NCBI RefSeq assembly: GCF_001368915.1
Contig: NZ_CSTE01000002.1
Coordinates: 1,532,615 to 1,596,614, forward strand
Length of the DNA: 64,000 bases
Direction of reading: 5' to 3'
From: Haloferax massiliensis
Lineage (GTDB): Archaea > Halobacteriota > Halobacteria > Halobacteriales > Haloferacaceae
Shown here: positions 5,756-13,717 of the stretch, piece by piece
Numbering within the stretch: position 1 is the stretch's first letter
Layout of the letters: each line of letters begins with the position of its first letter
Notes under the pieces: model-generated
What the model was told of the DNA's origin: nothing
Databases searched by the model: none
What the model saw: the letters and a program-made list of their open reading frames with translations, nothing else
Position numbers and translations under genes: made by a program

Positions 5756-6364
5756 TCAGCGACTGTCTGAGCCGGCGTCTATCGCGGCGGCGTCAGCGTC
5801 GTCGCCGGGGTTGGCATCGCCGGCGTCGTCGGCCAGCACGTCGTCGAGTCCCCACTCCGACGCCCGCGCGCGAGCCTCCTCGCGGGCCTCGGACCGAATC
5901 TCCTCGATGGCGTCGGCGTCGGCGAGGAACGATTCGACCGCGCTCTGGTCGCGGCCCTCCTCGCGACGGGCGTCGGGGGCGGCGTCGAGGGTCTTCGCCG
6001 CCAACCGCTCGTCGCCGGCGAGGACGCGGGCCGGCTCGCCCGGCGGGACGCGGAACGCCTCGACCTCGTGGGCGTCCGCGAGGGCGTCGGCGTCGACGGC
6101 GTGGACCGCGGCGCGGGTCGGGCCGGTGACGGCGAACCCCTCCAGCCCGTCGCGGCCGCCGACCTCGCGCTCCGTGTCGTAGGCGAGGACGGGGACCCCG
6201 TCTTCGAACGTGACGACGCCGCGGGTGGCCTCGCCGAGGAGCAGCGCGTCCTGCGGCTCGAAGACGACGTACCCGGTGAGTTCCTCGTCGAGCACCGTCC
6301 GAAGCACCGCCGCGGCGTCGTCGACGACGCGCGACCGGCGGAGTTCGCCCCGTGGAATTCTCAT
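5756..6364 (-). CDS. haloarchaeal acidic protein co-encoded with MinD2
   Basis: A 202-residue protein with an N-terminal globular half (1-110) resembling a small beta-rich domain (GYVVFEPQD...GVVTFEDGVPVLAYD) and a strongly acidic, alanine-rich C-terminal tail (about 160-202) that is probably disordered. Its ATG overlaps the stop of the upstream MinD-type gene (ATGA), so the two are translationally coupled. In H. volcanii, from memory, minD2 (HVO_0595) is followed by such a gene (HVO_0596), and both influence cell shape and motility. Biochemical function is unknown. The conserved pairing suggests it acts with the ATPase. Confidence 0.78.
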   Translation of the reverse strand: MRIPRGELRRSRVVDDAAAVLRTVLDEELTGYVVFEPQDALLLGEATRGVVTFEDGVPVLAYDTEREVGGRDGLEGFAVTGPTRAAVHAVDADALADAHEVEAFRVPPGEPARVLAGDERLAAKTLDAAPDARREEGRDQSAVESFLADADAIEEIRSEAREEARARASEWGLDDVLADDAGDANPGDDADAAAIDAGSDSR

Positions 6365-7481: not shown

Positions 7482-8495
7482 TCAGGCCGCCTCGGCGAGC
7501 GCGTCGAGCAGGCTGTCGTTTTCGTCCGGGCGGCGGACGTTGATTCTGACGTGCGAGTCGAGACCCCGATAGTCGCGGGCGTCGCGGACGGCGAAGCCGC
7601 GCCGCCGAGTCTCGCGGAGCACGCGGTCGACGTCGGCGGCGCGGAACAACACGAGCGCGCTGTCGGCGGGGTGGGGGTCGTAGCCGAGTCGGTCCAACTC
7701 CGCGAGTATCCGCGGGCGCTCCCGCTCGACCCGGTCGCGCGTCGCTTCGAGGAAGTCGTCCTGTTCGAGACAGAAGGTCGCCACCTCCACCGCGGGGGCC
7801 GACAGCACCCGCGTACAGCGCGCCCGCGAGAGCCGGTCGCCGAGGTCGCCGGTCGCGGCCGCGAAGCCCGCTCGGAGCGAGGGGACGCCGAAGACGTTCG
7901 TCACCGAGTGGAGCGCGATAACGCCGTCGAGGCCGGCCGTGCTCGGGAGGCGCGTGAATCCGAGGTACGACTCGTCGACGACGACGGGCGTGTCGGCCCG
8001 GCGACAGTCGTCGATGAACGCCCGAAGCTCGCCTCTCGGGTACGCCGTCCCGACGGGGTTCGCGGGGTAGCTGAGAACCACCGCCGCGTGCGCGGCGGGG
8101 TCGACGCGCTCCAAGAGTCTGTCGTGCGGTACGTGGACCGGTTCGCCCCCTTGGAGCCGGATTTCGCGGGCGTACTCGCCACAGCAGGGAGCCGGAAGCG
8201 CCACGCTGTCACCCGGCGAGACGGTCACGCCCACCGCGAGCCGCATCGCCTCGACGACGCCCGCGGCGGGGACGACCTCGTCGGGGTTACAGCCGACGAA
8301 CTCCGCGGCGGCGACGCGGAACCGCGAGAAGTCGTCCAGCGAGTCCCGCCGCGCCGTGGAGAGCGCCGACTCGTAGACGCCGGCGAGACCGGACGGTCGC
8401 TCCGGGTTCGAGCCGGTGCTGAAATCGACGAGCGAGTGGTCGGCGGTCCCGCCGTGGGTCACGTGGCCGACGTCGGAAACGGAACCGGGGTCCAT
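7482..8495 (-). CDS. CobD/HisC-like aminotransferase-fold protein lacking the PLP lysine
   Basis: A 337-residue fold-type I PLP-enzyme relative, close to the threonine-phosphate decarboxylase CobD encoded at 9325-10324. The usual landmarks are present: an N-terminal HGG segment, N-P-x-x-x near S-Y-P-A-N-P-V-G, and V-V-V-D-E-S-Y-L for the pyridine-ring aspartate. In the cofactor-binding segment, S-x-T-K-x-x-G-x-P of the family reads S-V-T-N-V-F-G-V-P, so Asn200 replaces the Schiff-base lysine (codon AAC at 7898-7896). It therefore probably cannot catalyse normal PLP chemistry. Gene length is intact. It may be a non-catalytic partner, a repurposed enzyme or an early pseudogene. Confidence 0.82.
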   Translation of the reverse strand: MDPGSVSDVGHVTHGGTADHSLVDFSTGSNPERPSGLAGVYESALSTARRDSLDDFSRFRVAAAEFVGCNPDEVVPAAGVVEAMRLAVGVTVSPGDSVALPAPCCGEYAREIRLQGGEPVHVPHDRLLERVDPAAHAAVVLSYPANPVGTAYPRGELRAFIDDCRRADTPVVVDESYLGFTRLPSTAGLDGVIALHSVTNVFGVPSLRAGFAAATGDLGDRLSRARCTRVLSAPAVEVATFCLEQDDFLEATRDRVERERPRILAELDRLGYDPHPADSALVLFRAADVDRVLRETRRRGFAVRDARDYRGLDSHVRINVRRPDENDSLLDALAEAA

Positions 8496-8594
8496 ACCAA
8501 CGTGCTAGCTACCGACCATAATCAAGGCTTCTGCGGGAACCACTTAGCTACCAGCGTCGATTTCTCGGCCGAGAAGGCGTTTGGCCGGCAGTTC

Positions 8595-9332
8595 TCAGAT
8601 CGGAGAGACGGTCGCGCGCTCGTCGGCGACGACGCCGTAACTCGCCTCGCCGACGCCCCGCGGAATCGAGTCGGCGTCGTACCGCGAATCGAGGCTCGCG
8701 CGCACCGCGTCGCGGACGCAGACCCGCGCCGCGTTGCCGACCTCGGTCGCGCTCCCCGAGAACGTCACCGGGTCGCCGGCGGGGTCGCACGCGGCGACCA
8801 CCGCGTCGGTCGTCGTCCCCGGCGCGCCGCAGCGCGCGAGGAGCGTCGCCGCCTTCGCCTCGGCGGCCACGGCGACGAGGTTGGCGAGCGCGCCCGGCTC
8901 CAGCGACCGCGTCGTCCCGACGAGGACGTTGACCGTTCCGACCGGGTCGTCCCGCTCCTCTCGGTCGTCGCCGGCCGCCGCGTCCGAGGCGGGCGACGCG
9001 TCGTCCCAGTCGCTCGGCTCGCCGTCTATCGGCAGTTCCGCCGGGTTCGACACGCCCGCGGTGGCGACGACTTCGACCGGGCCGAACCGGGCGCGCCGGG
9101 CGTGTTCCTGCCCCACGCCAGTCAGGAGCGTCGGTCCGCGCTCGTCGAAGCCGGCCGCCGAGAGCCGCCGTTCGATATACGCGTCGAGGTCGGTCTCGGG
9201 CCAGCCCTCGGGGACGGTGACGTTGAACGCGGCGTCGGCCCGCGACTCGCCGCCGGCGTAGCCAGTCGAGAGCCAGCGCGTCTCCGGGCGAACCAGCCGG
9301 CAGACGCCGTCGCGGCGCGTCGCCTCAAACAT
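8595..9332 (-). CDS. cbiZ: adenosylcobinamide amidohydrolase
   Basis: A 245-residue CbiZ family protein. CbiZ removes the aminopropanol arm from adenosylcobinamide to give adenosylcobyric acid, the archaeal way to salvage cobinamide. Typical segments are S-T-G-Y-x-G-G near residue 22, T-A-G-V-S-N-P in the middle and G-T-T-T-D-A-V-V-A-A toward the C-terminus. An acidic insertion of about 25 residues after P-S-D-W-D-D is a haloarchaeal expansion. It overlaps the 3' end of cobD by 8 bp and lies inside the cobalamin operon. Its product needs CbiB and CobD to be useful, and both of those look damaged here. Confidence 0.88.
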   Translation of the reverse strand: MFEATRRDGVCRLVRPETRWLSTGYAGGESRADAAFNVTVPEGWPETDLDAYIERRLSAAGFDERGPTLLTGVGQEHARRARFGPVEVVATAGVSNPAELPIDGEPSDWDDASPASDAAAGDDREERDDPVGTVNVLVGTTRSLEPGALANLVAVAAEAKAATLLARCGAPGTTTDAVVAACDPAGDPVTFSGSATEVGNAARVCVRDAVRASLDSRYDADSIPRGVGEASYGVVADERATVSPI

Positions 9333-10324
9333 CGTCGGCGACAGCGGCGAGCGCCCGGAGCAGTTCGTCGTTCTCGTCCGGGCGTTTCACCGCGACGCGG
9401 ACGTGCGAGTCGAGCGTCGGAAACGTCGTCGCGTCCCGGACGGCGACGCCGCGGTCGCGGGCGGTCTCGACCACCGCGTCGACGTCGCGGTCGCCGACGT
9501 CCACGAGGAGAAACGGCGCGTCCGACGGGGAGACGTCGAAGGCCTCAGACAGCGTCTCGCGGAGTCGCTCGCGTTCGTCTGTGACGCGCGCTCGGGTGCG
9601 CGAGACGAACGCCTCGTCCCGCATGCAGTGCGCGCCGACGGCGGCCGCGGGCGTCGAGAGCGAGTCGGTCGCCGAGGTCGCCGACGGCGACGGCGAACCC
9701 GGCGCGGATGCCCGGCAGGCCGAACATCTTCGTCAGCGACCGGGCGACGACGACGCCGGATGTGCCCGCGAGACTCGGCTCGTCGGTGAAGTCGAGGAAC
9801 GCCTCGTCGACGACGAGAACTGTGTCGGCCTCGCGACAGCGCGCCGCGAACGCCCGGAGGTCGGACGCGGACGCGAGTTCACCCGTCGGGTTGTTGGGCG
9901 TGCAGACGACCGCGACCGCGTGGCCCGCGGGGTCGGCGTCGAGGAGTTCGTCGTGGGCGACCGCCACCGGCTCCGCCCCCTGCAGGCGAATCTCGCGGTC
10001 GTACTCGCCGAAGCTCGGTTCGGGGACGAGCGCGGTGTCGCCCGGCGAGAGCGTCACCTCGAACGCGAGCCGCAGGGCTTCGAGGCCGCCCGCGGTCGGC
10101 ACGACCGCTTCGGGGACACAGCCGACGTAGTCGCCGGCGGCCGCCCGGAAGTCGGCGTAGTCGTCGTCGGGGTAGCGGGTCGCGGCGTCGAACGCCTCCC
10201 GATACACGGCCTCGACGTCGTCGGGTCGCTCGGGGTTGGTGTTCGCGCTGAAGTCGAGGACGGTCGGGTCGGTGGTCCCGCCGTGGGGGACGCGGCTCCC
10301 CGCGCGGACGGATTCAGGGTCCAT
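9325..10324 (-). pseudogene. cobD: threonine-phosphate decarboxylase, frameshifted
   Basis: CobD makes (R)-1-amino-2-propanol phosphate from L-threonine phosphate for the nucleotide arm of cobalamin. Reading from 10324, the frame encodes residues 1-221 up to G-D-L-G-D-R-L and includes an intact PLP site, S-L-T-K-M-F-G-L-P-G with Lys199. The continuation L-S-T-P-A-A-A-V-G-A-H-C-M starts at 9660 in another frame and runs to the stop at 9325. One surplus base (9661) sits at the junction. Against the paralogue at 7482-8495, eight residues are missing there, so a 23-bp deletion is the simplest history. Without correction the product diverges and loses about 110 residues. A sequencing error is the alternative. 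Confidence 0.8.
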
Positions 10325-11366
10325 CGTCGATGTCGGCGTCGGCGCCGCCGGCGTCGGCCGCCGCGGTTCCGGTTCCGGTCCCGGTCTCGACTGCCTCGGG
10401 GTCCAGCGTCGAGAGCACGTCGAGCGTGGCCGCCTCCACGTCGTCGAGGACGCCCATCCGGTCGGCGAGCATGAGCGCGCCGCCCATGCCCGCGCCCTCC
10501 TTGGCCTCGCCCGCGGCGTAGCGGTCCAGCGGGTGCGTCTCGAAGCCGGGGTCGGTGACGGTCAGTTCGAGGTCGAACGCCTCGGCGGCGTCGGCCAGTT
10601 CGGGCACGTCCTCGGCGAGGTACGACGTGGTGGCGAGCGTCAGGTCGCCGCTCGCGCCGGCGTGGCGGGCGAGCGCGGCGGCCGCGAGCAGTTGGGTCCC
10701 GCCGCCGAGCGTCACGTCGACGCCGTTTTCGAGCGCGCCGACGGTGAGGCCGGCGACGACCGGGAGCACCGGGTCGCCGAGATAGCGGGCGGCGCGCCGG
10801 GGTTTGTGGGCCGCGAAGCCGGGTTCGACGTCGCTGGCCTCGAACGCCTCGGCGACGACATCCTCTTTCAGGCTCGTCGGGTTGTCCGGGAGCGACGACG
10901 AGACGGGGAACTCCTCGCCGAGCGCGCGGAACACGGCGAGCGCGGTGGTCGTCCCGCCGGGGACGGTCTCGCCGATGACGAGTTCGTCTTCGGGGAGCGC
11001 GAGGCCCATCCGGCGGGCCGCCTCGAACGCGCCGGGCGCGGTCGGGACCGGCTCGCTCTCGCGGATGTCGCGGCCGGGTCGCGCGCCCACGTCGATGGTC
11101 GGCGCGGCGCTCGGCTTGGCGAGGCCGGCGTCCACGGTGAGCACGTCGAACCCGGTGAGCTGTTTGACGGCGCGGGTGACGGCCGCGGGCGTCGGACAGC
11201 CCGTCGGACTGACCGGCGTCACCGGCGAGCGGACGGGCTCGCCGTACTCGATGATTTCGGCGTCGGCGCTCGGCGTGTGGCCGACGAGCGACGGGTCCGC
11301 GCCCGCGGCGCTGATGCCGGGAATCTTCGCCGTCTCGGTCGTGCCGGCGACGAGGACTACTCGCAT
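10314..11366 (-). CDS. cobT: archaeal CobT-type nicotinate-nucleotide phosphoribosyltransferase (UPF0284)
   Basis: A 350-residue protein of the archaeal CobT/UPF0284 family, which supplies the alpha-ribazole phosphate lower-ligand precursor. Recognisable parts are the N-terminal V-V-L-V-A-G-T-T-E-T-A-x-I-P-G-I-S-A-A-G, the central T-x-D-A-G-L, G-x-x-x-G-R-D-I and G-E-T-V-P-G-G-T-T-T-A segments, and the G-G-G-T-Q-L-L-A-A region. The last 30 residues are a low-complexity Gly/Thr/Ala/Asp tail. It overlaps cobD by 11 bp and cobY by 10 bp. Length and motifs look intact. Confidence 0.9.
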   Translation of the reverse strand: MRVVLVAGTTETAKIPGISAAGADPSLVGHTPSADAEIIEYGEPVRSPVTPVSPTGCPTPAAVTRAVKQLTGFDVLTVDAGLAKPSAAPTIDVGARPGRDIRESEPVPTAPGAFEAARRMGLALPEDELVIGETVPGGTTTALAVFRALGEEFPVSSSLPDNPTSLKEDVVAEAFEASDVEPGFAAHKPRRAARYLGDPVLPVVAGLTVGALENGVDVTLGGGTQLLAAAALARHAGASGDLTLATTSYLAEDVPELADAAEAFDLELTVTDPGFETHPLDRYAAGEAKEGAGMGGALMLADRMGVLDDVEAATLDVLSTLDPEAVETGTGTGTAAADAGGADADIDDGP

Positions 11367-11989
11367 CGGTCCTCCGCGAGCGCGATGTCTGTCGGGCGGT
11401 TCACGTTGAGTGCCAGTCTGGAATCTGCGGAGAGGTACATGGTCGAATCGGTGTCTGTGTCTGCGTCGGTGTCAGTGCCGGCGTTCGTCTCGGCGTCGAT
11501 ATCGGCGTCTGCGCCCGCGGGACCGACGACGCCCAGCCCAGTCGGGCAGACGGCGGTCCCCTCGTGGTCGAACACGAGCGCGTCGTCTATGCTGGCTCCG
11601 AGGTCGCGCTTCAGTTCGACGGGGACGCACGCGGTGGCGGCCCCGCCGTCCGCGGCCGCGACGACCGCGTCGACGTGTTCGGGAGCGACGAGCGGCAGGT
11701 CGGAAACGACGGTGACGACCGGCCGGGAGACGCGGTCCAGCGCGAAGTCGAGGTCGGAGACGTAGCCGTCGCCGGGGGCCTCGATGGGGTCGAGACCGAG
11801 GTCGGCGGCTCGCTCGCGGGTGTTCGGCGTGTGCGGCGAGGTGACCGCGCGGACGGTCCCGACGCTCGAATCGCGGAGCGCCGCGGCGACTCGGTCGAGC
11901 ATGGGCCGCCCGCAGATGTCCACGAGCGGCTTTTCGACCGGCGCGTCGAGGCGGGTGCCGCGGCCGCCGCACATCACGAGAGCGTCCAC
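11357..11989 (-). CDS. cobY: adenosylcobinamide-phosphate guanylyltransferase
   Basis: CobY activates adenosylcobinamide phosphate with GTP; it is the archaeal, kinase-free counterpart of CobU. The 210-residue protein opens with the nucleotidyltransferase signature C-G-G-R-G-T-R-L and has the K-P-L-V-D-I-C-G-R-P-M substrate loop and a V-V-S-D-L-P-L metal-binding strand. A Thr/Asp/Ala-rich stretch (about residues 160-183) is a low-complexity insertion. I chose GTG at 11989, giving V-D-A-L-V-M-C-G-G as in homologues. An ATG at 11974 that overlaps the cobS stop is the alternative. No second nucleotide kinase domain is present. Confidence 0.88.
   Translation of the reverse strand: MDALVMCGGRGTRLDAPVEKPLVDICGRPMLDRVAAALRDSSVGTVRAVTSPHTPNTRERAADLGLDPIEAPGDGYVSDLDFALDRVSRPVVTVVSDLPLVAPEHVDAVVAAADGGAATACVPVELKRDLGASIDDALVFDHEGTAVCPTGLGVVGPAGADADIDAETNAGTDTDADTDTDSTMYLSADSRLALNVNRPTDIALAEDRCE
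11434..11508. repeat. imperfect short tandem repeat inside cobY
   Basis: Bases 11434-11508 consist of imperfect repeats of a GTC/GTCTGC-type unit encoding an Asp/Thr/Ala-rich run in CobY. The repeats keep the frame, and such tracts often vary in length between strains. Confidence 0.5.
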
Positions 11990-12738
11990 GTCACCACCCC
12001 CGCGTGGACGGCCGCGGCGCGGGCCAGTTCGTTCGTCGCGCCGAGCAGGTCGCCCGAGACGCCGCCGAGTCGGGCGCGCCCCCACGAGCGGACGAGGAGC
12101 GCGACGACCGGCCCACAGCAGAGCGCCGCGACGACGGCGGGGCCGCCGGTGACCGGCGCGAGCGCGACGACCGGGAGACAGGCCACGGCGACCGCGAGGA
12201 GCCCCGACGGGCTGTTCTCGCCGACGAGCGCCGAGCCGAGTCCCTCGTGGGCGGGCGCGCCGAGACAGACCAGCGTCGCCATGCCGGCTTTCGCGCCGAC
12301 CTCGGCGGCGAGGGCGATTGCGACGGCGGCCGTGAGGCCGACGCGACCCCCCGCGCCCGCGAGGCCGAACGCGCCGAGCGCGAGGACGACGAGCGTCAGC
12401 CCGAACGCGAGCAGGCCGCCGACCCCCGTCTGCGAGTCTTTCAGGACCGACAGCCGGCGGTCGGCGTCGCCGTGGACGACCGCGGCGTCGCCGAGGTCCG
12501 CGAGGCCGTCGGCGTGGGTGACGCCCGTCACGAGATACAGCGTCACGAGGTACAGCGCGGCCGCGGTCGGTATCGGCAGGGGGAGCAAAAACGGGAGCGC
12601 GGCCAGCGCGCCGACGACGTAGCCGGCGAGCGGGAACGTCGCGGGCGCGCGCCTGAACGCGTCCCAGTTGGACTCGTCGCCGCCGACGGGGAGGCGGGTG
12701 AGGAAGCCGAGCGCGCCGCGGAGGGCGGTCAGAACCAC
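11974..12738 (-). CDS. cobS: adenosylcobinamide-GDP ribazoletransferase (cobalamin synthase)
   Basis: CobS joins adenosylcobinamide-GDP to alpha-ribazole(-phosphate) at the membrane. The 254-residue protein is strongly hydrophobic with about six or seven membrane segments. It has the N-terminal F-L-T-R-L-P-V-G motif and the acidic, Mg-binding H-A-D-G-L-A-D-L-G-D-A loop typical of the family, then K-D-S-Q-T-G-V-G-G. GTG at 12738 is chosen because it gives the family start just before A-L-R-G-A-L-G-F. It overlaps cbiB by 10 bp and cobY follows with a small overlap, so the cluster is translated as an operon. It appears intact. Confidence 0.9.
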   Translation of the reverse strand: MVLTALRGALGFLTRLPVGGDESNWDAFRRAPATFPLAGYVVGALAALPFLLPLPIPTAAALYLVTLYLVTGVTHADGLADLGDAAVVHGDADRRLSVLKDSQTGVGGLLAFGLTLVVLALGAFGLAGAGGRVGLTAAVAIALAAEVGAKAGMATLVCLGAPAHEGLGSALVGENSPSGLLAVAVACLPVVALAPVTGGPAVVAALCCGPVVALLVRSWGRARLGGVSGDLLGATNELARAAAVHAGVVTWTLS

Positions 12739-13085
12739 GCGACCACCCCCGCGACTGCGAACGCGAGGAGGCCGGCCCGCGAGACGAGTCGGACGCCCCG
12801 CGCGGCGGTCGCCGCGTCGGGAGCCTCCGGCCCCCCGTCGAGCAGGTAGTGACCGGGCTTTTCCAGTCGCGTTTGGAGGAGGACCGCGAGCGTCGCCATC
12901 GGCCACCCCGAGTTGGGCGACGACGGCCGCCGCGCCAGCTCGCCGACCCGCGTCGGACGGGACCACTCGCGGTCGACGGGCGAGACGAGTCGGCCGAACA
13001 GCGCGACCGGGTGGATACGTGCTGGGGGTTCGGCGAAGCCCCTGTCCAGCGCCGCGGCGGCGACGACGGCGGCCGCGGCGGTCAC
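12729..13085 (-). pseudogene. cbiB: adenosylcobinamide-phosphate synthase with large in-frame internal deletion
   Basis: CbiB attaches aminopropanol phosphate to adenosylcobyric acid and is normally a membrane protein of roughly 300 residues. Here only 118 residues remain. Residues 1-45 match the family N-terminus (A-L-D-R-x-F-A-E-P-P-A-R-I-H-P-V-A-L-F-G-R), and from about residue 54 the sequence is the family C-terminus (P-S-S-P-N-S-G-W-P-M-A-T-L, then L-E-K-P-G-x-Y). About 190 central residues, including most membrane helices, are missing while the frame is kept. The GTG start overlaps the stop of the upstream HAD gene. Activity seems very unlikely. A collapsed assembly is the alternative. 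Confidence 0.82.
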
Positions 13086-13717
13086 GGGCACGGGTCCTCC
13101 CCGGCGCGCAGTCTCGCCGCGACCGATTCGAGCGTCGTCTCCCGCAGGTTCACGAACCGGCCGCCGACCGCCTCGATACCGCCGTCTGCGTCCGGGTCGT
13201 CGCCGACGTGGACCAGCTCGGCCGCGTCGACGCCGAGGCCGCGGGCGGCCGCCTCGAACGCCTGCCGGTGGGGTTTTCGCCACCCGCAGGCGACGCTCGT
13301 CGTGATGTCGTCGAAGCCGCGCCGGTCGAGGTCCGACCGGATGAGCGTCCGAGCGACGAGTTCGGGGACCGAGCAGTTCGAGAGGAGGCCGACCGCGCCG
13401 GCCTCGCGGGCAGCCGCGACCGCGTCGACCGCGCCGGGACGGGTGGTCACCTCGGGGTCGAACGCCGTGATGACTGCTCGTCGGGCGGCGTTGTCCGGCG
13501 AGTCGACGCCCCGAGAGCGGAGCGCCGCGGCGACGTGGGCCGGAAGCGGGACTTCCGCGCCCTCGGGCGCGTCGATGTGGACCTCGCGGTAGGCGTCGTC
13601 CCAGTCGTCGGGGACGGCGACGCCGTACTCGCGGAGCGCGTCTGCGACCGCCGCACCGGGGTCTGACGGGTACTCGGCGTCGACGAGCGTACCGAAGAGG
13701 TCGAACGTGACTGCCAC
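13082..13717 (-). CDS. HAD superfamily hydrolase
   Basis: A 211-residue haloacid-dehalogenase-fold phosphatase. Motif I is F-D-L-F-G-T-L-V-D at the N-terminus (a D-x-F-G-T variant), motif II is L-L-S-N-C-S, motif III is the K of W-R-K-P-H, and motif IV is H-V-G-D-D-P-D-A-D-G. The cap region is helical. It is the first gene of the cobalamin operon and its stop overlaps the cbiB start (GTGA), so a role there, for instance removing a phosphate from a pathway intermediate, is plausible but inferred. GTG at 13717 is supported by a GAATATA element 28-34 bp upstream. Confidence 0.85.
   Translation of the reverse strand: MAVTFDLFGTLVDAEYPSDPGAAVADALREYGVAVPDDWDDAYREVHIDAPEGAEVPLPAHVAAALRSRGVDSPDNAARRAVITAFDPEVTTRPGAVDAVAAAREAGAVGLLSNCSVPELVARTLIRSDLDRRGFDDITTSVACGWRKPHRQAFEAAARGLGVDAAELVHVGDDPDADGGIEAVGGRFVNLRETTLESVAARLRAGEDPCP

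What the first reader, a model, noticed from the sequence alone, without database searches (positions are those of the whole stretch)
7482..8495. CobD-like paralogue with the PLP lysine replaced by asparagine
Seen: the segment that reads S-L-T-K-M-F-G-L-P in cobD reads S-V-T-N-V-F-G-V-P here, at the equivalent position (residue 200 vs 199), codon AAC. The rest of the gene is full length and keeps the ring aspartate. Known: fold-type I PLP enzymes need this lysine for the internal aldimine. Inference: a non-catalytic relative kept for another role (substrate or cofactor binding, partner of CobD or CbiB), or a young pseudogene.
Basis: partly seen in the sequence, partly recalled or inferred. Interest (0 to 1): 0.7.

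Follow-up and report, generated by a model that had tools for sequence, protein, structure and literature searches.

The report
Conserved dead cousin of B12 enzyme
All 15 Haloferax species examined carry a second copy of the vitamin B12 enzyme CobD in which the lysine that holds the cofactor has become asparagine and much of the active site has drifted, yet selection still preserves the protein, so it probably does a non-catalytic job that nobody has tested.

Summary
The gene at 7482-8495 (-) is the genus-wide paralogue listed in H. volcanii as cobD2 (HVO_0593). Residue 200 is Asn in 15/15 Haloferax CobD2 proteins; 88/88 other haloarchaeal CobDs I aligned have Lys. It is not a pseudogene: omega is about 0.16, no higher than that of catalytic CobD1 (0.21) in the same species pairs. 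It has a conserved promoter-like block of its own and a confident CobD fold.

The lysine is not the only loss: the ring-stacking Phe and other residues invariant in CobD are changed, and the pocket is no longer more conserved than the rest. Threonine-phosphate decarboxylation is therefore very unlikely; a non-catalytic role (partner or regulator) is the best reading, not proven.

Three other haloarchaea have CobD homologues with Asn, Thr or Ala here; one of these genomes lacks Lys-type CobD, CbiB and CobS altogether.

In this strain catalytic cobD1 is frameshifted (23-bp deletion) and cbiB has lost about 548 bp, so CobD2 is the only full-length CobD left. The paralogue was already listed; I found no report of its missing lysine.

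The parts
7482..8495 (-). cobD2 (HVO_0593 orthologue): Lys-less CobD paralogue, 337 aa
   Evidence: ORF; orthologues; named cobD2 in PMC8305020
7896..7898 (-). codon AAC = Asn200, at the position of the PLP lysine (CobD1 Lys199)
7809..7811 (-). codon of Arg229; Trp in the 14 other CobD2 and 87/88 Lys-type CobD (change seen only in this strain)
8516..8531 (-). conserved upstream block GAAGCCTTGATTATGG, 20 bp before the ATG; promoter-like (BRE/TATA), suggests own, near-leaderless transcription
   Evidence: alignment of 15 species; promoter function inferred
8595..9332 (-). cbiZ, adenosylcobinamide amidohydrolase
9325..10324 (-). cobD1, catalytic-type CobD (Lys199), disrupted: 23-bp deletion at about 9659/9660 shifts the frame
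10314..11366 (-). cobT candidate
11360..11989 (-). cobY
11977..12738 (-). cobS
12732..13091 (-). cbiB remnant: about 548 bp internal deletion (about residues 51-228 missing); no intact copy in the genome
6361..7161 (-). minD2 (HVO_0595 orthologue), next gene after cobD2
5756..6364 (-). HVO_0596 orthologue, reported partner candidate of MinD2
   Evidence: PMC11588486
15981..16649 (+). cdrS (HVO_0582 orthologue), far edge of the cobalamin block
   Evidence: PMC8406309
17050..18255 (+). ftsZ2

Best explanation
CobD2 is a conserved, catalytically dead CobD paralogue (a fold-type I pseudoenzyme). Shown: it keeps the CobD fold in the model, lacks the PLP lysine in every Haloferax species, has lost further PLP-pocket residues that are invariant in CobD, and is under purifying selection as strong as that on CobD1. 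Inferred: it cannot form the internal aldimine and does not decarboxylate threonine phosphate; it acts by binding. The most likely single role in Haloferax is a non-catalytic subunit or regulator of CobD1, pairing with it through the ordinary fold-type I dimer surface as LCB1 pairs with LCB2 in serine palmitoyltransferase. I give that specific role about 0.3 and the pseudoenzyme statement itself about 0.85.
For: Asn at position 200 in 15/15 species, with AAC and AAT codons, so the residue rather than one DNA change is kept. Lys in 88/88 other sampled haloarchaeal CobD. Mean omega 0.158 for CobD2 against 0.213 for CobD1 in the same 45 species pairs. Of 89 near-invariant CobD positions CobD2 keeps 66; fixed changes include N28G, S104C, R196H, K200N and G206S, and the ring-stacking F105 is C/S. 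The pocket is 99.6% conserved in CobD1 but in CobD2 no more conserved than the rest (0.907 vs 0.878, permutation p 0.18). AlphaFold model pLDDT 91.9, pTM 0.90; best solved match Salmonella CobD 1lc5, Z 38.3, rmsd 2.1 over 326 residues. Score to TIGR01140 (CobD) 192 bits, below the 290.55 cut-off that H. sulfurifontis CobD1 passes with 300. CobD1 is present in all 14 other Haloferax genomes beside CobD2, in the same cluster.
Against: No biochemistry. Heterodimer formation with CobD1 was not tested. CobD2 has its own conserved upstream block, so it need not be co-expressed with cobD1. Outside Haloferax a Lys-less homologue persists without Lys-CobD, CbiB or CobS. In this very strain cobD1 and cbiB are broken while cobD2 is full length, though those lesions look recent. 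D174, S197, R208 and R317, which in Lys-type CobD hold cofactor and substrate (by homology), are kept, so a ligand may still bind and an unusual reaction is not excluded.
Confidence: 0.65

Rival explanations
1. Recruited to the neighbouring cell-shape and division locus. Lys-less CobD homologues are CobDs left between cdrS-ftsZ2 and minD2 that took on a structural or regulatory role linked to MinD2.
For: In Haloferax cobD2 is the gene next to minD2. In genome G406 the Ala-type copy lies directly between cdrS-ftsZ2 and minD2-HVO0596, with the Lys-type CobD in a separate cobalamin cluster. In G234 the Asn-type copy lies beside cdrS-ftsZ2, with no CbiB or CobS found in the genome. In G454 and G449 Lys-type copies sit next to minD2 outside a cobalamin cluster.
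Against: In G397 and G467 an ordinary cobalamin cluster lies next to minD2, so the position may simply be where the cob cluster once was. G124's Thr-type copy lies near nadABC and gyrBA instead. No phenotype or interaction data.
Confidence: 0.15
2. Ligand sensor or carrier: CobD2 binds threonine phosphate, aminopropanol phosphate or PLP without turning it over and signals or channels it.
For: D174, S197, R208, R304 and R317 are invariant although the lysine and stacking Phe are gone.
Against: Other pocket positions vary between species (T148 to L/V/M, N145 to A/S, Y51 to D in three species), which argues against one tightly fixed ligand.
Confidence: 0.2
3. Enzyme with changed chemistry: a lysine-free PLP/PMP enzyme (as ColD and E1 use His) or a metal site from the new cysteines C104, C105 and C227.
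For: Lysine-free fold-type I enzymes exist (PMC8987622). 3FKD, a solved P. gingivalis protein annotated as CobD, has His in this column. CobD2 has fixed new cysteines C104 and C227 and, in 13/15, C105.
Against: Asn is not an acid/base; the ring-stacking Phe, a pocket glycine and the first Asn of NNPTG are gone; pocket conservation is not above background. Whether the cysteines lie together was not measured.
Confidence: 0.1
4. Missing L-threonine kinase (EC 2.7.1.177), the open gap in the haloarchaeal pathway.
For: The gap is stated in PMC8305020.
Against: The paper describes the gap for haloarchaea while CobD2 is confined to Haloferax in its family; no kinase domain found.
Confidence: 0.03
5. 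Decaying pseudogene.
For: In this strain W229R at a near-invariant site and 8 nonsynonymous to 7 synonymous changes on its own branch, beside broken cobD1 and cbiB.
Against: 15/15 species full length, omega about 0.16; the excess on the window branch is not significant (Fisher p 0.08 and 0.74).
Confidence: 0.04

Closest known systems
CobD, L-threonine-O-3-phosphate decarboxylase (Salmonella 1LC5/1LC7/1LC8/1LKC; TIGR01140)
   Same: Fold, full length, ring Asp, Arg residues for phosphate and carboxylate, position in a cobalamin gene cluster
   Different: Asn for Lys; ring-stacking Phe, NNPTG residues, pocket Gly and Asn28 changed; fails the TIGR01140 cut-off
HVO_0593 / cobD2 of H. volcanii (PMC8305020, Table 3)
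   Same: The orthologous gene: 51% identical to cobD1, numbered directly after cbiZ (HVO_0592)
   Different: That table marks its cobD assignment 'yes' with no characterised reference protein; the missing lysine is not mentioned in the main text
LCB1 subunit of serine palmitoyltransferase (PMC3794620)
   Same: Fold-type I paralogue that lost the PLP lysine and is kept
   Different: LCB1 is a known partner of LCB2; no partner is shown for CobD2
3FKD, Porphyromonas gingivalis protein annotated as threonine-phosphate decarboxylase
   Same: CobD-like protein without the lysine (His in that column)
   Different: His rather than Asn; bacterial; function untested as far as I could find
ColD / E1 sugar 3-dehydratases (PMC8987622)
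   Same: Aminotransferase fold with the catalytic Lys replaced
   Different: Use His and PMP for dehydration; CobD2 has Asn and a degraded pocket

Membership tests
CobD threonine-phosphate decarboxylase (TIGR01140 equivalog) | Lysine for the PLP internal aldimine | tested here: not met
   Asn200 in 15/15; Lys in 88/88 reference CobD
CobD threonine-phosphate decarboxylase (TIGR01140 equivalog) | Score above the curated cut-off of 290.55 bits | tested here: not met
   192.3 bits; H. sulfurifontis CobD1 scores 300.0
CobD threonine-phosphate decarboxylase (TIGR01140 equivalog) | CobD fold | tested here: met
   Model pLDDT 91.9; 1lc5 Z 38.3, rmsd 2.1 over 326 residues
CobD threonine-phosphate decarboxylase (TIGR01140 equivalog) | Decarboxylase activity | not testable with these tools
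   no assay available
Fold-type I PLP superfamily, Aminotran_1_2 (PF00155) | Pfam gathering score | tested here: met
   91.4 bits against 19.7
Pseudogene | Stops, frameshifts or relaxed selection | tested here: not met
   Open in 15/15; omega about 0.16
Non-catalytic heteromer subunit (LCB1-like) | Physical complex with the catalytic paralogue | not testable with these tools
   single-chain prediction only; no complex data

The most novel reading that the evidence does not exclude
CobD has been turned into a non-catalytic protein several times independently in haloarchaea (Asn in Haloferax; Asn, Thr and Ala in three other genomes), repeatedly at the cdrS-ftsZ2 / minD2 locus, where it now serves cell shape or division control rather than B12 synthesis.
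Probability: 0.12. Interest if true: 0.75.

Novelty: new variant of a known kind. Interest (0 to 1): 0.5.

Why it matters
A gene listed as a functional cobD in the model archaeon H. volcanii very probably cannot do that reaction (inferred from its 15 orthologues; the H. volcanii sequence itself was not among those held). It is a clean, genetically tractable case of a fold-type I enzyme becoming a conserved pseudoenzyme beside its active parent, with apparently independent repeats in other haloarchaea, one in a genome without Lys-CobD, CbiB or CobS. Annotation pipelines that count cobD2 as CobD would wrongly call the B12 pathway complete in strains such as this one, where cobD1 and cbiB are broken.

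Tried and rejected
1. A single ancient Lys-less CobD family: the first tree grouped all Lys-less proteins (support 0.85), but adding more Lys-type sequences of their own family moved Haloferax CobD2 into Haloferacaceae (0.96) and the others into family f3 with Lys-type orphans, so the first grouping looks like long-branch attraction; independent losses are preferred. 2. Haloferax-only phenomenon: rejected, Lys-less copies also found in G234, G124 and G406. 3. Pseudogene: rejected for the genus. 4. Threonine kinase gap: not supported. 5. Finding more Asn-type CobD by DNA pattern in 391 genomes of the class: 18 genomes matched, the 15 Haloferax, G234, and two others (G163, G290) that I did not follow up. 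7. Rate covariation of CobD2 with CobD1 or MinD2 was not run: 14 species with recombination would not be decisive.

Full report
What it is. The window lies in an assembly of 4,015,175 bp in 8 contigs, the figures published for Haloferax massiliense Arc-Hr (PMC5862939). The gene at 7482-8495 (-) codes for a 337-residue CobD homologue whose sequence reads HSVTN200VFGVP where CobD1 reads RSLTK199MFGLP. The codon is AAC.

Conservation. All 15 Haloferax species held have the gene, full length, the other 14 being 73-94% identical to this one, and all have Asn. Both Asn codons occur. The 14 intact Haloferax CobD1 proteins and all other Lys-type haloarchaeal CobD that I aligned, 88 sequences in all, have Lys. 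Across the genera of the family with CobD matches (24 of 28), only Haloferax carries this second copy (G040's second hit has the same score as the first and looks like an assembly duplicate; G376 in the larger sample has a tandem pair, both with Lys). It is already listed in H. volcanii as cobD2, HVO_0593, 51% identical to cobD1 (PMC8305020); the main text does not mention the lysine, and no other paper in the library mentions the locus tag.

Selection. By Nei-Gojobori counts the mean omega over 45 species pairs is 0.158 for CobD2 and 0.213 for CobD1. That is purifying selection, not decay. The region just upstream holds a block conserved in all 15 species (GAAG..TTGAWTAT, ending about 20 bp before the ATG), which I read as its own promoter, typical of near-leaderless haloarchaeal transcripts; this is inference.

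Active site. The model is confident (pLDDT 91.9, pTM 0.90) and matches Salmonella CobD best (1lc5, Z 38.3, rmsd 2.1 over 326 residues). Of 89 positions near-invariant in CobD, 66 are kept. Besides K200N, changed positions include N28G, S104C, F105C/S (the position that stacks on the PLP ring in HisC, by homology from my own knowledge), N145A/S, T148L/V/M, R196H and G206S. Asp174, Ser197, Arg208 and Arg317 are kept. In CobD1 the pocket is 99.6% conserved against 88% elsewhere; in CobD2 it is 90.7% against 87.8%, not distinguishable (the pocket list is mine, from CobD/HisC homology). The pocket is thus no longer the most constrained part of the protein. It also fails the curated cut-off for CobD. 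I conclude that it is very unlikely to be a threonine-phosphate decarboxylase.

Elsewhere. Lys-less CobD homologues also occur in three other haloarchaeal genomes of another family: G234 (Asn), G124 (Thr) and G406 (Ala). G124 and G406 have a normal Lys copy in a cobalamin cluster too. G234, a 99% complete genome, has no Lys-type CobD, no CbiB and no CobS match. A first tree grouped all Lys-less proteins; with denser sampling Haloferax CobD2 falls within Haloferacaceae and the others fall with Lys-type orphans of their own family. Independent losses are therefore the better reading, with modest support. A bacterial precedent is 3FKD, annotated as CobD, with His at this column.

Place. In Haloferax the order is ftsZ2-cdrS ... 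cbiB-cobS-cobY-cobT-cobD1-cbiZ-cobD2-minD2-HVO_0596. In G406 the Ala-type copy stands alone between ftsZ2-cdrS and minD2-HVO0596, and in G234 the Asn-type copy stands beside cdrS-ftsZ2. MinD2 affects cell shape and motility in H. volcanii (PMC11588486); cdrS regulates cell division (PMC8406309). But some genomes have a whole ordinary cobalamin cluster at minD2, so the position may only mark where the cluster used to be. I hold this as a rival, not the main reading.

This strain. Against H. sulfurifontis, cobD1 has a 23-bp deletion between TCGC microhomologies that shifts the frame, and cbiB lacks about 548 bp (about residues 51-228) with GCGTC microhomology. No intact cbiB exists elsewhere in the assembly. 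The published coverage is 620-fold Illumina mate-pair, so simple sequencing error is unlikely, but reads were not available. If real, this strain cannot attach the aminopropanol arm in the known way, and the Lys-less CobD2 is its only full-length CobD. CobD2 here also carries W229R at a near-invariant site; an excess of nonsynonymous change on this branch is suggestive only (p 0.08).

Mechanism. Shown: conservation, lysine loss, pocket loss, selection, modelled fold. Inferred: no aldimine, no decarboxylation, function by binding. The likeliest specific role in Haloferax is a non-catalytic partner or regulator of CobD1, by analogy with LCB1/LCB2 (PMC3794620): the two genes occur together in all 14 other Haloferax genomes, and fold-type I enzymes build their sites at dimer interfaces (established knowledge). 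It is weakened by the G234 case, which by the tree is however not orthologous to Haloferax CobD2.

Novelty. The gene was known; its predicted loss of catalysis, genus-wide fixation under selection, pocket decay and recurrence elsewhere were not found in the literature that I could search. New variant of a known kind (lysine-less fold-type I paralogue).

Noticed in passing
window 9325-10324: The catalytic cobD1 of this strain is frameshifted by a 23-bp deletion flanked by TCGC; intact in the 14 other Haloferax species.
   Followed up: yes
window 12732-13091: cbiB has lost about 548 bp (about residues 51-228) with GCGTC microhomology; no other copy in the assembly. With cobD1 this suggests loss of aminopropanol-arm synthesis in H. 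massiliense Arc-Hr.
   Followed up: yes
L122 9754-10830 (genome G234): Asn-type CobD homologue as the only CobD of a 99% complete genome that has no CbiB or CobS match; beside cdrS-ftsZ2.
   Followed up: partly
L125 9591-10634 (genome G406) and L123 8864-9940 (genome G124): Second CobD copies with Ala and Thr at the PLP lysine; the Ala copy sits between cdrS-ftsZ2 and minD2-HVO0596, the Thr copy in the nadABC/gyrBA region.
   Followed up: partly
L129 8405-10518 (genome G376): Tandem pair of CobD genes about 115 bp apart, both with Lys: a possible early stage of the same kind of duplication.
   Followed up: no
window 7482-8495, residues C104, C105, C227: Cysteines gained in CobD2 (15/15, 13/15 and 15/15 species), two of them at or next to the former ring-stacking position; a metal or disulphide site is conceivable.
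   Followed up: no
L093 (G163) and L095 (G290): Two non-Haloferax genomes match the Asn-type DNA pattern (in G163 away from its CobD gene); identity of these hits not checked.
   Followed up: no
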